Shown here: piece by piece, positions 34,222 through 38,520 of the stretch
How the letters are laid out: every line of letters begins with the position of its first letter
Position numbering within the stretch: the first letter of the stretch is position 1
Assembly: GCA_022574655.1 (NCBI GenBank)
Contig: JACZRQ010000013.1
Coordinates: forward strand, 1-40,000
DNA length: 40,000 bases
Source of the DNA: Chloroflexota bacterium
GTDB lineage: Bacteria > Chloroflexota > Dehalococcoidia > SM23-28-2 > RBG-16-64-32
Direction: 5' to 3'
Translations under genes and position numbers: made by a program
The notes under the pieces: model-generated
The model's database searches: none
What the model was told of the DNA's origin: nothing
What the model saw: the letters and a program-made list of their open reading frames with translations, nothing else

Positions 34222-34231
34222 GGGACGGGGG

Positions 34232-34639
34232 TCACGGGTTGGGGTCGAGGGGGGCAGAGGGCGGGACGGACGGACGGGCCCCGATTGGATCGGGGCGGGC
34301 TCCGAGGGGTCGGGGCAGGCGATCAAGCTGTAACGACGCGCAATCAAGGGGTTTTCCGTATCTGATTCTCGATTGGGTGCGGGCGGCAGGTTGGGATTTT
34401 GATTGGGCGGTGGGATTCTTCAGTTTTTCGAGGACGGCCTGTGCCTGAGCGGGGGTTACTTCGGCGGCACTCTCCTTGATTGCGTGCCATGCATCAGCAG
34501 GGACGTTCACGTCCAATCGACCGCCGGCGATCTGGTTGGCGCGCTCGCCGCGCGGGGGCGCGCCGCGGTGCTTGCCTTTGGGACGCTCTTCAGTTGGTCT
34601 GGGGTTAGACGGCCCCTCGGCGTGGCTCGGGACAGGCAT
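34232..34639 (-). CDS. Small hypothetical protein
   Basis: ATG preceded by AGAAGGAGCC; central segment GGRLDVNVPADAWHAIKESAAEVTPAQAQAVLEKLKN looks protein-like; remainder low complexity. Confidence 0.4.
   Translation of the reverse strand: MPVPSHAEGPSNPRPTEERPKGKHRGAPPRGERANQIAGGRLDVNVPADAWHAIKESAAEVTPAQAQAVLEKLKNPTAQSKSQPAARTQSRIRYGKPLDCASLQLDRLPRPLGARPDPIGARPSVPPSAPLDPNP
34279..34295. terminator. Hairpin downstream of SDR cluster
   Basis: CCCCGAT-TGG-ATCGGGG, perfect 7-bp stem. Confidence 0.35.
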
Positions 34640-34672
34640 GAGCGTGGCTCCTTCTGGTTATGGGTGTGCTCT

Positions 34673-34723
34673 GAAGGCGGAGCGTGCCCCGAAGGCGGAG
34701 CGTACGGTTCCGCCGCAGGCGGA
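34673..34723. repeat. Short tandem repeat plus palindrome downstream of vsr
   Basis: GAAGGCGGAGCGT at 34673 and 34691 (18-bp period), then TCCGCC-GCA-GGCGGA at 34709-34723. Confidence 0.7.
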
Positions 34724-34737
34724 CACGGTGCGAGGCG

Positions 34738-35205
34738 TCAGTCTAGTTTGAGGGTATCGCGGGTTGGGGAGAGGTGGAAGGGGGAAGTGGCAGTTTGGGC
34801 GGCTTGCCGGACAGCCGTGGCGATTCGATCTACGACCGCTGTTGGACGGCGTTCGATGTCGTGCTCCCAGACGCGGATCACCCTCCAACCGGAGCGGCGA
34901 AGCTTCCGGAAGTTTCTCTGATCCCGTTCGCGCGTCTTGCCGATCTTCTCTTGCCAGAAGGGTGATAGATCGTCGCGCCAGAGAGGGAAGCGATAGCCGT
35001 GCCAGAAATCGCCATCTATGAAGACAGCCAACCGTGACGACGGGAACACCACGTCAGGTTTGCCCGGTAGCTCTTTAGCGTGCTTTCTGAACCGTAAGCC
35101 ACGCCCGTGCAGTGCTGATCTGACGAGTAGCTCGGGTGTAGTGTCTTTGCCCTTGACGCGAGACATGCAGTAGCTGCGCTGGGACGGACTTAGGGTGTCA
35201 GGCAC
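34738..35205 (-). CDS. vsr: Very short patch repair (Vsr) endonuclease
   Basis: LSPSQRSYCMSRVKGKDTTPELLVRSALHGRGLRFRKH...GKPDVVFPSSRLAVFIDGDFWHG; GTG start. Confidence 0.95.
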   Translation of the reverse strand: MPDTLSPSQRSYCMSRVKGKDTTPELLVRSALHGRGLRFRKHAKELPGKPDVVFPSSRLAVFIDGDFWHGYRFPLWRDDLSPFWQEKIGKTRERDQRNFRKLRRSGWRVIRVWEHDIERRPTAVVDRIATAVRQAAQTATSPFHLSPTRDTLKLD

Positions 35206-35210
35206 GCCAG

Positions 35211-37202
35211 CTAGCGATCCTGTGGGCCAAGACCCTTGGCGCGCTTGGCCGGACCCCGATAAACTGCGCCTTCCTCGAGCACGCCTCTAGCCTGAGCAAC
35301 CTCGGCTTCTTTCCGCGCAAAGTCATCGTGCTTAACGTTTCCTTCAAGAACCGCCTCGTAGTGCTTGTATCGTCTGAGGCCCCGCTCATAGACCTCATTC
35401 CAGAGCCGGATCTCGCCGTCCTCGCGCTCGTCCCAAGCGGCTTTGGTTTCAGCTGTCACGGAAGGCTCAGTGCCGCAGATCATCATCATGTACAAGCCGG
35501 AGCGAGCCGCGGCGAGGCGCTCACGGTACCGTTCGAGCCTCTGAAGATCATCCAAGGTAACTGGGTGGCCGGAGCGCTTTATCTCGATCACTACGAGCCT
35601 GCTCTCATCGTACAAGGCGAGGAAGTCGTACCTCCCGCGCTCCTCCTCATCCGTTATCTCCTCAAAATGCCACTCTCGCAGTTGCTTAGTGACCGTCTTT
35701 TCCTCGGAAAGCACCTGGTAGTCAGGGTTTAGCAACCAAGGGAAACCAGCGATTAGATCGTGAAGGTTGTCCATGCCAACCTTCGGAGCAGTCTCTGGCG
35801 CGTCCTGAACTAACATCTGATGAAACTTCTCGATTACGTTGAGCCTCCCTTTTATGACTTCGAGGATCGCACGACTTTCGAGCACCTTCCATTGGGCCAA
35901 ATTTGAGAGTAAGTTTCCCAATTCCTCTGGATCATCGCTAACGGCCTCGATGTCAGCGATGACGTCGTGGAAGTGCCGATACTCAAACGCTCGGATCAGC
36001 GAGTCCGCCAATTCGATTGCGCGCTCCTCCTCCGGCTCAGCTTGGCCAAGCACTTTTAGGAACTTTGAGACCTGGTCCCGAGAGGGCGACTCGAGGACAG
36101 CGATCCGAGATTTGAAGTCCTCCCTACTCGAGACCCAGTCCTCCATTTGCTTGCCTTTTCGATCAGCCCATTCACGGAGTACCCGCCGTGACAGCGCGTC
36201 GCCCCACTCTCTGAACGACTGAGACTCCTCGGCGTCCCAGTCAATCTCTTGGCGATCTGTGGAAACCAAGTCCGAGTCATCATCTGTTCCACGATCGAGG
36301 AAGTCGGCTTCGATCGCTCCACTTACGTAGCGGGTGCCATGCTGACCCGAAGCCGTTCCTTCCACATCGAAGAAGAACGGGGGAGCCTGAGCCGTCTTTC
36401 CGTTCACGTAGACCGTGAAGCCACGCAACTCCTTGGACTTGATGAGCGACTTAGAGAATCCGAAGAAGTACTTGACCAGGCCGCCGCCGTCGATTTCCTC
36501 GGTGGCATAGTCCTCCGCAGGCTCCCTATACTCGAAGTCGATGCTCGGCTCGCCGATGGGTTCGTCATTCAAGATGATGGCCATCTGGCCGCGCACGGTC
36601 CGGCTGAATCTCCTAGCAAGTGCCTCACGAAGACCTCCGATATCCAAGGGCGTTTTGTGCTTGAGTGAGGTAAGCGTGATTATCGTACCCGTCTCTGTCT
36701 CAGCGGGAATCTCGACTCCAATCCGGCCCGGGATTGGGATGTTTCCAGCTTCGTTATCTTTCTTTTTGAGCGCTGATACATCGAGCTCAAGTTCGGCGGC
36801 CTTACCGCTCTTCCATGTCACAACCCTCATCTTGGCCGCAACCCCGAATCCGGCTAATTTTCCGATGCCCTTTCTGCCCATGACTTTCCGCTTGCCAGCC
36901 ATCAACCCACCGTCATCCCGGCGATTTCGTCCGATAACGAGATAAGCATCCTGAACCTCGTCTTCGTCCATTCCGGATCCATCGTCGCGAATGGTGATCT
37001 CACTCTTATCACGGTCGTACGCTTGGTCTAGCGGAGCATCTATGTAGACGTTATTCGCGCCAGCATCCCAGCAATTCGCCACAAGCTCGGCGATTGCCAC
37101 GTTTCGCTGCTTATAGTTCTGAACGCCAAGATGCACAAGCGTACGACCAAGGACCTTTATGTAGAATTGGCGCTCGGTGACCCCAGATGCGTCTTCCGCC
37201 AT
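35211..37202 (-). CDS. GHKL ATPase (MutL/MORC/Hsp90-like) with C-terminal PD-(D/E)XK-like region
   Basis: N-box AIAELVANCWDAGAN, G1 IRDDGSGMD, G2 GRKGIGKLAGFG; C-terminal YDFLALYDESRLVVIEIKRSG. Start MAEDASG at 37202. Confidence 0.9.
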   Translation of the reverse strand: MAEDASGVTERQFYIKVLGRTLVHLGVQNYKQRNVAIAELVANCWDAGANNVYIDAPLDQAYDRDKSEITIRDDGSGMDEDEVQDAYLVIGRNRRDDGGLMAGKRKVMGRKGIGKLAGFGVAAKMRVVTWKSGKAAELELDVSALKKKDNEAGNIPIPGRIGVEIPAETETGTIITLTSLKHKTPLDIGGLREALARRFSRTVRGQMAIILNDEPIGEPSIDFEYREPAEDYATEEIDGGGLVKYFFGFSKSLIKSKELRGFTVYVNGKTAQAPPFFFDVEGTASGQHGTRYVSGAIEADFLDRGTDDDSDLVSTDRQEIDWDAEESQSFREWGDALSRRVLREWADRKGKQMEDWVSSREDFKSRIAVLESPSRDQVSKFLKVLGQAEPEEERAIELADSLIRAFEYRHFHDVIADIEAVSDDPEELGNLLSNLAQWKVLESRAILEVIKGRLNVIEKFHQMLVQDAPETAPKVGMDNLHDLIAGFPWLLNPDYQVLSEEKTVTKQLREWHFEEITDEEERGRYDFLALYDESRLVVIEIKRSGHPVTLDDLQRLERYRERLAAARSGLYMMMICGTEPSVTAETKAAWDEREDGEIRLWNEVYERGLRRYKHYEAVLEGNVKHDDFARKEAEVAQARGVLEEGAVYRGPAKRAKGLGPQDR

Positions 37203-37203
37203 G

Positions 37204-38265
37204 TCAGTTCCCTCCGAGATGAGTGCGGACGGCGACCGCCTGCCACTTCCCAAAGTTCGGAGGAAGGGCATTACCAATCATCGCCGCTGCGCCAGACTTG
37301 CCACCGCTCAGCGTGAAATAGTAGCCGGTCGGGAATCCCTGGATGAGTGCCGCTTCTCTTACAGTGATCGCCCGATGCTCCTCGGGGTGAAGGAAGCGAC
37401 CCTTCGAGGGATTTGTGCATCCTGTCGTGATCGTCGGGGACGCGGAATCCCAAGCCATACGGCCATATATGTCCTTGAAGCCATTCATCCGCTTGTGGCA
37501 ACCTAGCTGGTCGTCTCCAAGAGCTGACCGCCCGCCGCCGTCCAGCGGTATTCGTCTGATCAAGCGGCGAATACGGGGAGAACGCTTTTCACCGTGTATG
37601 TGAAGAGGATCGTCGGATTCCGTGGTAGACAGCATGCTTCCGATCGCGGCCCGAACGTTTCTACGGGACCGGAGCGGAGTAGGAAGTTCTACGGCGCCGC
37701 GACGACTTGCGAGCAAGATGAGTCGCCAGCGACGCTGAGGTACGCCGTAGTCGGCCGCGTTACAGACGCTGAAATTGAGCCGGTACCGCATGGCACGAAG
37801 GGCGATGCAAAAACGTGCGAACCGACGATCATCCTTGAGAGCGGGAACGTTCTCCATCATCACTGTCTTTGGACGAAGCTCGTGGACGAAGCGAAGAAAC
37901 TCGAAAATGAGGTCGTTACGTTCGTCGTCAATCGTGCGCGAGCCGTTTCGCGTTCTAAGCGATGAGAACCCCTGGCACGGTGGGCATCCGGCGAGGAGGT
38001 CGAGTTCGCGCTTCTTGATGCCGAGCGCATGCTTCACGTCCCTAACATCCAGCTCACGAATGTCAACATCCCAGAGCTTGACGCGGGGGTGGTTGGCGCG
38101 ATAGGTCTCGACGGACAGCGCATCGTTGTCGACGGCACCGATCACGTTGAAACCCGCTCGTTTCAGGCCAAGAGTTAGACCGCCGCAGCCCGAAAACAGG
38201 TCGAGGGCAGTGAGCTTGTTTCCGCGACGACGCGTGGTTGTAAGCATGGGCGGGGAAGCATTCAT
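37204..38265 (-). CDS. DNA (cytosine-5-)-methyltransferase, Dcm family
   Basis: DLFSGCGGLTLGLKRAGF, GCPPCQGFSSL, MMENVPAL, GVPQRRWRLILLASR, MIGNALPPNFG. ATG at 38265 preferred over 38307. Confidence 0.95.
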   Translation of the reverse strand: MNASPPMLTTTRRRGNKLTALDLFSGCGGLTLGLKRAGFNVIGAVDNDALSVETYRANHPRVKLWDVDIRELDVRDVKHALGIKKRELDLLAGCPPCQGFSSLRTRNGSRTIDDERNDLIFEFLRFVHELRPKTVMMENVPALKDDRRFARFCIALRAMRYRLNFSVCNAADYGVPQRRWRLILLASRRGAVELPTPLRSRRNVRAAIGSMLSTTESDDPLHIHGEKRSPRIRRLIRRIPLDGGGRSALGDDQLGCHKRMNGFKDIYGRMAWDSASPTITTGCTNPSKGRFLHPEEHRAITVREAALIQGFPTGYYFTLSGGKSGAAAMIGNALPPNFGKWQAVAVRTHLGGN

Positions 38266-38520
38266 CGTAGTGATTCTACTATGAATCAGCAAATGGATCC
38301 CGCCCATTCCTCAAGCCTACACCGACTTTTCAAGGTCGGAGGACCAGCCGGTGGGCCCTGCCCGGGATAAGGGCATTCGGCAACGGGGCCAACGTTCGTG
38401 GTCCGCTCATTCGTTCGAGAGCCTCCCTCCTGAGGCGGGCAGGCAGAATGAGCTGGACGGACGGAGGTCCGGCGAGGTGGCAAGCGGGAAGTTCGTCCGT
38501 TCGATATAGTTGGCTCTGAG

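What the first reader, a model, noticed from the sequence alone, without database searches (positions are those of the whole stretch)
34738..38265. Compact candidate defence module: cytosine methyltransferase, GHKL ATPase-nuclease and Vsr
Seen: three minus-strand genes, tightly packed. The Dcm stop (37204-37206) lies next to the ATPase ATG (37200-37202), and 5 nt separate the ATPase stop from the Vsr GTG. They lie between metabolic genes and show less extreme GC by eye. Known: MutL/MORC-type GHKL ATPases have been linked by comparative genomics to restriction-modification loci with Dcm and Vsr. No separate restriction endonuclease gene is visible, so cleavage would depend on the ATPase fusion. 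Inference: a minimal three-gene variant of these ATPase-dependent R-M-like systems, possibly acting on unmethylated or mismatched DNA.
Basis: partly seen in the sequence, partly recalled or inferred. Interest (0 to 1): 0.7.

Follow-up and report, generated by a model that had tools for sequence, protein, structure and literature searches.

The report
Cytosine-methylation restriction module with ATPase-nuclease and Vsr
Three adjacent bacterial genes encode a known kind of DNA-based self/non-self system: a cytosine methyltransferase that marks the cell's own DNA, an ATP-driven nuclease that probably cuts unmarked DNA, and a repair enzyme that fixes the mutations the marking causes. It is widespread rather than new, but relatives of the nuclease sit beside unrelated methyltransferases, which makes its target choice an open question.

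Summary
In detail: three minus-strand genes, Dcm (37204-38265), GHKL ATPase-nuclease (35211-37202) and Vsr (34738-35205), tightly packed and lower in GC than their flanks. They form a 4.3-kb insertion. In nine genomes of the same family the two flanking genes are direct neighbours, and none of the 14 held family members has the Dcm or this ATPase.

The ATPase is a distant but full-length homologue of the BbrUII/HgiDII restriction enzymes (paraMORC3-type: MORC-like ATPase plus PD-(D/E)XK nuclease). NCBIfam and PADLOC already catalogue these enzymes as Type II. The three-part composition is common, not minimal: of 99 ATPase loci, 86 have Dcm nearby, 43 have Vsr and 41 have both. The most likely roles are Dcm for self-marking, the ATPase as the restriction nuclease, and Vsr for repair of deaminated 5mC. 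The window's ATPase belongs to a small unnamed clade found in four phyla and two viral contigs, and scores below the NCBIfam cut-off.

The most interesting point lies outside the window. ATPase-nucleases that are 55-72% identical sit beside unrelated methyltransferases, including in one case an N6-adenine enzyme. Orthodox Type II restriction enzymes do not behave that way.

The parts
37204..38265 (-). C5-cytosine DNA methyltransferase (353 aa) with intact motifs (FSGCGG, PPCQ, ENV, QRR, GNA)
35211..37202 (-). GHKL ATPase fused to a PD-(D/E)XK nuclease (663 aa), BbrUII/HgiDII superfamily, paraMORC3-type; candidate restriction enzyme
36603..37145 (-). GHKL (Bergerat) ATP-binding region, residues about 20-200; E39, N43, D46, D73, G75, K111, G112, G114, K115 invariant in 54 homologues
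35307..35840 (-). C-terminal nuclease domain, residues 455-632; E501, D526, E540, K542
35214..35330 (-). C-terminal tail, residues 625-663 (YRG..RA.GLG.QD), conserved in the clade, low model confidence, function unknown
34738..35205 (-). Vsr very-short-patch repair endonuclease (155 aa, GTG start); E25, D51, W68, H69 conserved in all 42 aligned; structural zinc Cys ligands absent
34222..38520 (.). Insertion between the SDR gene (ends 34221) and the VIT1 gene (starts 38521), which are direct neighbours in nine genomes of the same family

Best explanation
A horizontally acquired restriction-modification system of the BbrUII/HgiDII (paraMORC3) superfamily. Dcm methylates cytosine in a target sequence and so marks self DNA. 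The ATPase-nuclease is the restriction enzyme. As in MutL, Hsp90 and MORC, ATP binding is expected to dimerise the N-terminal GHKL domains into a clamp around DNA and to license the C-terminal PD-(D/E)XK nuclease, which cuts DNA lacking the mark. Vsr nicks T:G mismatches left by deamination of the 5mC that Dcm makes, limiting the mutagenic cost. Shown here: gene set, domain content, intact catalytic residues, full-length homology, conserved neighbourhood, and insertion at a site empty in relatives. Inferred: cleavage, its dependence on ATP and on absence of methylation, and the repair role of Vsr. The target sequence is unknown.
For: Domain and family matches. Profile-profile match of the window's clade to family members above the cut-off over residues 4-615, E 2e-56, including the nuclease. 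Relatives in the same gene setting score 779-813 against the NF050001 cut-off of 550. The ATPase model matches MORC3/MORC4/MORC2 ATPase structures with AMPPNP or DNA. The nuclease domain model (pLDDT 89) is nearest NucS/EndoMS. ATPase and nuclease residues are conserved. Dcm lies within 3 kb in 86 of 99 ATPase loci. Insertion and absence in 14 family genomes. M.HgiDII was characterised as a 5mC methyltransferase for GTCGAC (PMC5867850). An EcoRII-type nuclease + Vsr + Dcm module in phage KL3 gives the precedent for the Vsr role (PMC3091744).
Against: The ATPase scores 233.8 against the NF050001 cut-off of 550, so it is not a member by the curated rule. Nothing shows that the ATPase and Dcm share a target: the host genome does not avoid GTCGAC (0.92 of expectation), and the Dcm recognition region differs from those of the BbrUII-clade partners. 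Similar ATPases pair with unrelated methyltransferases elsewhere, which is odd for an orthodox Type II enzyme. Vsr is absent from more than half of the related loci, and its divergence follows neither Dcm nor the ATPase in a noisy test.
Confidence: 0.72

Rival explanations
1. The ATPase-nuclease is a stand-alone phage sensor-effector like VcSduA (GHKL Shedu, type I-D), activated by infection rather than by missing methylation; Dcm and Vsr are merely neighbours or protect the host from it.
For: Same GHKL + PD-(D/E)XK plan; VcSduA protects on its own and needs both active sites (PMC12137116). Four of 22 relatives hit SduA_C weakly. A few relatives have no Dcm within the fetched flanks; L060 lies beside DruE-like and UvrD helicases.
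Against: No SduA_C (DUF4263) match in the window protein, even at E <= 1. Dcm is near in 86 of 99 loci, often overlapping or abutting the ATPase gene. Full-length match to known restriction enzymes.
Confidence: 0.12
2. A mismatch-directed or hemimethylation-directed system: the ATPase acts as a MutL-like partner of Vsr, and the two together nick and cut mismatched or part-methylated invading DNA.
For: GHKL ATPase of the MutL/MORC type; the nuclease domain is nearest NucS/EndoMS; Vsr lies directly downstream with a 5-nt gap. MutL-Vsr interaction is known in E. coli and N. gonorrhoeae (PMC12907096).
Against: 56 of 99 ATPase loci have no Vsr within 2.5 kb. When present, Vsr occurs in many different orders and on either strand relative to the ATPase. 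The NucS resemblance is weak by fold (E 2.4e-3) and covers only the catalytic core.
Confidence: 0.08
3. Cargo without present activity: a decaying or unexpressed insertion in this genome.
For: No sigma-70-like promoter was found; the genome is a draft metagenome bin, 77% complete.
Against: All three ORFs are open and keep their catalytic residues, including K542, which 21 of 54 relatives lack. The promoter scan is weak evidence in this phylum.
Confidence: 0.08

Closest known systems
BbrUII/HgiDII family restriction enzymes with their m5C methyltransferases (NCBIfam NF050001)
   Same: GHKL ATPase + PD-(D/E)XK in one chain, homologous over nearly the full length; adjacent C5-cytosine methyltransferase
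   Different: 233.8 bits against a cut-off of 550; separate 100%-supported clade; different Dcm recognition region; target not shown to be GTCGAC
paraMORC3 proteins in R-M loci (Iyer, Abhiman and Aravind 2008, PMC2292703)
   Same: GHKL + S5-type ATPase with a C-terminal nuclease bearing E-D-ExK, in neighbourhoods with Dcm and Vsr
   Different: Original paraMORC3 alignment not at hand; no SFII helicase seen in the window
VcSduA / Shedu type I-D (PMC12137116)
   Same: N-terminal GHKL ATPase and C-terminal PD-(D/E)XK nuclease in one protein
   Different: No DUF4263 match; VcSduA acts alone, without Dcm or Vsr
Phage KL3 EcoRII-C + Vsr + EcoRII methylase module (PMC3091744)
   Same: Nuclease, Vsr and m5C methyltransferase in one compact three-gene module
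   Different: Orthodox Type II nuclease instead of a GHKL ATPase-nuclease
MORC3/MORC2/MORC4 ATPase cassettes
   Same: Best structural matches to the ATPase part of the model (Foldseek E about 1e-13 to 1e-14)
   Different: Eukaryotic chromatin proteins without the nuclease domain

Membership tests
BbrUII/HgiDII family (NF050001) | Curated score cut-off of 550 bits | tested here: not met
   233.8 bits; relatives L034, L038, L047, L050 reach 779-813
BbrUII/HgiDII family (NF050001) | Full-length homology, ATPase through nuclease | tested here: met
   hhalign probability 100, E 2e-56, residues 4-615 against 5-640
BbrUII/HgiDII family (NF050001) | Adjacent m5C methyltransferase | tested here: met
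BbrUII/HgiDII family (NF050001) | Recognition of GTCGAC | tested here: inconclusive
   No avoidance of GTCGAC in 1 Mb of the host genome; Dcm recognition region unlike those of BbrUII-clade partners
Type II R-M system | Nuclease and methyltransferase act on the same sequence, cleavage blocked by methylation | not testable with these tools
   Needs biochemistry or methylome
paraMORC3 | GHKL with all ATP-binding motifs plus C-terminal E-D-ExK nuclease | tested here: met
   Invariant motif residues; E501, D526, E540-x-K542; MORC-like fold
Shedu type I-D | DUF4263/SduA_C domain | tested here: not met
   No PF14082 match at E <= 1 in P0001 or at E <= 0.1 in the isolated domain
Vsr | Curated Vsr models and catalytic residues E25, D51, H69 | tested here: met
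Vsr | E. coli-type structural zinc site (Cys ligands) | tested here: not met
   The corresponding Cys positions are not Cys in the window
HEF_HK / Response_reg_2 system (PMC8011034) | HEF_HK domain and Response_reg_2 partner | tested here: not met
   No such Pfam match at E <= 1 in the three proteins

The most novel reading that the evidence does not exclude
The ATPase-nuclease does not read a DNA sequence itself. It is a general cutting engine whose target choice comes from whichever methyltransferase is encoded beside it, or from a signal other than sequence, so methyltransferases can be exchanged freely. This would be a Type II-like system with Type I/III/BREX-like division of labour in only two proteins. 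Support: in one clade, ATPases 57-72% identical have adjacent Dcms with recognition regions only 11-29% identical, with no hypervariable block in the ATPase. In the window's own clade, L224 (56% identical) abuts an N6-adenine methyltransferase, and its similarity to the Dcm-paired L223 is flat along the chain. Type II enzymes of unrelated specificity generally share no sequence similarity (PMC4081073).
Probability: 0.28. Interest if true: 0.68.

Novelty: new member of a known kind. Interest (0 to 1): 0.38.

Why it matters
The module is an example of a common but little-studied R-M class in which the restriction enzyme resembles MutL, Hsp90 and MORC. Its mechanism, and what ATP does in it, are unknown as far as the searches here show. 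The survey turns a vague question into a direct one: swap the methyltransferase and see whether the cut site moves. An answer would also bear on how eukaryotic MORC ATPases sense methylated DNA.

Tried and rejected
(1) Target prediction from genome avoidance: GTCGAC is not avoided. CAGCTG and GAGCTC are depleted to 0.51, but the genome carries at least two other DNA_methylase genes and the module is a recent insertion, so nothing follows. (2) Single-sequence scans for close relatives in genome and viral contigs found none; alignment queries did. (3) Vsr co-divergence with Dcm or the ATPase: partial correlations near zero, with uncertain Vsr ORF starts; inconclusive. (4) Shedu membership: no DUF4263 match. 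(5) HEF_HK two-component-like system: no such domains. (6) Insertion ends: a 14-nt near-repeat (34261-34274 and 38452-38465) lies near both ends but in low-complexity sequence, and the relatives' intergenic regions do not align well enough to call it a target-site duplication. (7) The BbrUII source paper (PMC3815753) was not held. (8) PDB search by sequence found no solved full-length paraMORC3.

Full report
What is there. The three ORFs are as described: Dcm 37204-38265, ATPase 35211-37202 and Vsr 34738-35205, all on the minus strand, with 1 nt between the first two and 5 nt between the last two. GC is 0.56-0.58 against 0.60-0.68 around. Pfam and NCBIfam place all three firmly. Dcm keeps the C5-methyltransferase motifs. 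Vsr aligns with E. coli Vsr over residues 7-122; E25, D51, W68 and H69 are identical in all 42 Vsr proteins aligned, while the Cys ligands of the E. coli structural zinc site are absent.

The ATPase. Pfam sees only HATPase_c_3 above its cut-off. NCBIfam gives NF050001, 'BbrUII/HgiDII family restriction enzyme', at 4e-69 but 233.8 bits, under the cut-off of 550. PADLOC gives two Type II restriction enzyme models. All 22 relatives in a first alignment match NF050001 and both PADLOC models, and four of them pass the cut-off. A profile of the window's clade aligns with a profile of the family proper over residues 4-615 (E 2e-56), nuclease included. In 54 homologues the GHKL residues E39, N43, D46, D73, G75, K111, G112, G114 and K115 are invariant; in the nuclease, E501 is kept in 51, D526 in 52, E540 in 53 and K542 in 33. 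The model (pLDDT 82.9) matches MORC3, MORC2 and MORC4 ATPase structures best. The nuclease domain modelled alone (pLDDT 89) has NucS/EndoMS among its nearest solved structures, at modest significance (E 2.4e-3), in line with a sequence-profile hit to NucS. This is the paraMORC3 plan of Iyer et al. 2008: GHKL plus S5, C-terminal E-D-ExK nuclease, neighbourhoods with Dcm and Vsr (PMC2292703).

Neighbourhood. Loci came from whole-genome, plasmid, phage and genome-contig searches seeded with this ATPase, so they are not a random sample. Of 99 distinct loci, 70 have a Dcm within 300 bp, 86 within 3 kb; 43 have a Vsr within 2.5 kb; 41 have both. Hosts include Chloroflexota, Actinomycetota, Acidobacteriota, Planctomycetota, Bacteroidota, Pseudomonadota and archaea. 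A P2-like E. coli phage carries an annotated 'ParaMORC3' beside a Dcm, and a Rhizobium plasmid carries Vsr, Dcm and ATPase. The order dcm-atp-vsr on one strand recurs in L061, L087 and L088. The three-gene form is therefore normal for this class.

Clade. In a 72-row tree the window's ATPase groups with Mycolicibacterium peregrinum (L060) and a Lentisphaerae bin (L062), support 100, apart from the BbrUII clade. An Acidobacteria bin (L061, gene split by a frameshift) is 58% identical by tblastn, and two viral-collection contigs are 58% and 56% (L223, L224). All share a conserved C-terminal tail (YRG..RA.GLG.QD) in a region of low model confidence.

Acquisition. The phylum is Chloroflexota: same-phylum contigs G149:C19 and G117:C6 have the lengths of named Chloroflexi/Chloroflexota contigs. 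In nine genomes of the same family the SDR and VIT1 genes that flank the module lie 39-236 bp apart in the same orientation; here they are 4.3 kb apart. None of the 14 other family genomes has the Dcm or an ATPase of this clade. The flanks' synteny also shows that the contig belongs to this organism.

Mechanism. The plainest reading is restriction-modification: Dcm marks, the ATPase-nuclease cuts unmarked DNA under ATP control, and Vsr repairs T:G mismatches from deaminated 5mC. M.HgiDII is a characterised 5mC methyltransferase for GTCGAC (PMC5867850). A compact nuclease-Vsr-methylase module with the same division of labour has been described in phage KL3 (PMC3091744). For a GHKL + PD-(D/E)XK protein, VcSduA shows that both active sites are needed for protection (PMC12137116). 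Cleavage, ATP dependence and methylation dependence remain inferred for the window.

A puzzle. Orthodox Type II enzymes of unrelated specificity generally share no sequence similarity (PMC4081073). Here, among 85 pairs of loci whose ATPases are at least 55% identical, 32 have adjacent Dcms under 40% identical. Most belong to one clade (L100, L112, L114, L127, L128, L134, L089, L133, L033), so they are not independent. Within it, ATPases 57-72% identical abut Dcms with recognition regions 11-29% identical, and no block of the ATPase is hypervariable. In the window's own clade, L224 abuts a D12-class N6-adenine methyltransferase instead of a Dcm, and its ATPase is as close to the Dcm-paired L223 (58%) as L061 is (54%), evenly along the chain. 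Conversely, the window's Dcm is 55-57% identical to Dcms whose ATPases are only 27-30% identical. Either specificity shifts with few residues, or the ATPase-nuclease does not read sequence itself. This is inference from sequence; adjacency does not prove that the methyltransferase is cognate.

Verdict. A real, intact, horizontally acquired member of a known kind, in an unnamed subclade. Ordinary as an architecture; the partner-swapping pattern in its family deserves a test.

Noticed in passing
L063, L064, L067, L073-L076, L078, L079, L083, L084, L086, L088, L090, L092, L095, L097-L099, L106, L120 (ATPase genes): In 21 of 54 homologues the catalytic Lys of the nuclease (K542 here) is replaced, in 18 of them by Met (EFMRPG), while the Asp, Glu and Arg around it are mostly kept; a variant active site or a loss of cleavage.
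   Followed up: partly
L100, L112, L114, L127, L128, L134, L089, L133, L033: ATPase-nucleases 57-72% identical but adjacent Dcms of several unrelated types: repeated methyltransferase exchange.
   Followed up: partly
L224:4926-10991: Viral-collection contig with an ATPase of the window's clade 5 bp from a D12 N6-adenine methyltransferase, next to an Eco57I-like 993-aa enzyme and a recombinase (integrase family, phrog_95).
   Followed up: partly
L060:3-6980: The Mycolicibacterium peregrinum relative has no Dcm within 5 kb and lies behind DruE-like and UvrD-like helicase genes.
   Followed up: partly
L039:3059-6024: Neisseria gonorrhoeae record with a split Dcm, a truncated ATPase and an intact-looking Vsr: a decayed copy of the module.
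   Followed up: no
L051:6205-8076 and L053:5677-7578: Relatives from 6-Mb Chloroflexota genomes keep the ATPase half but have an unrelated C-terminal half without the nuclease motif or any Pfam match.
   Followed up: partly
window 34232-34639 (-): 135-aa ORF downstream of Vsr inside the insertion, no match sought beyond ORF listing; two 18-nt tandem units at 34666-34701.
   Followed up: no
G000 genome (1.0 Mb sampled): CAGCTG and GAGCTC occur at half their expected number; two further DNA_methylase genes lie on contigs C29 and C105.
   Followed up: partly
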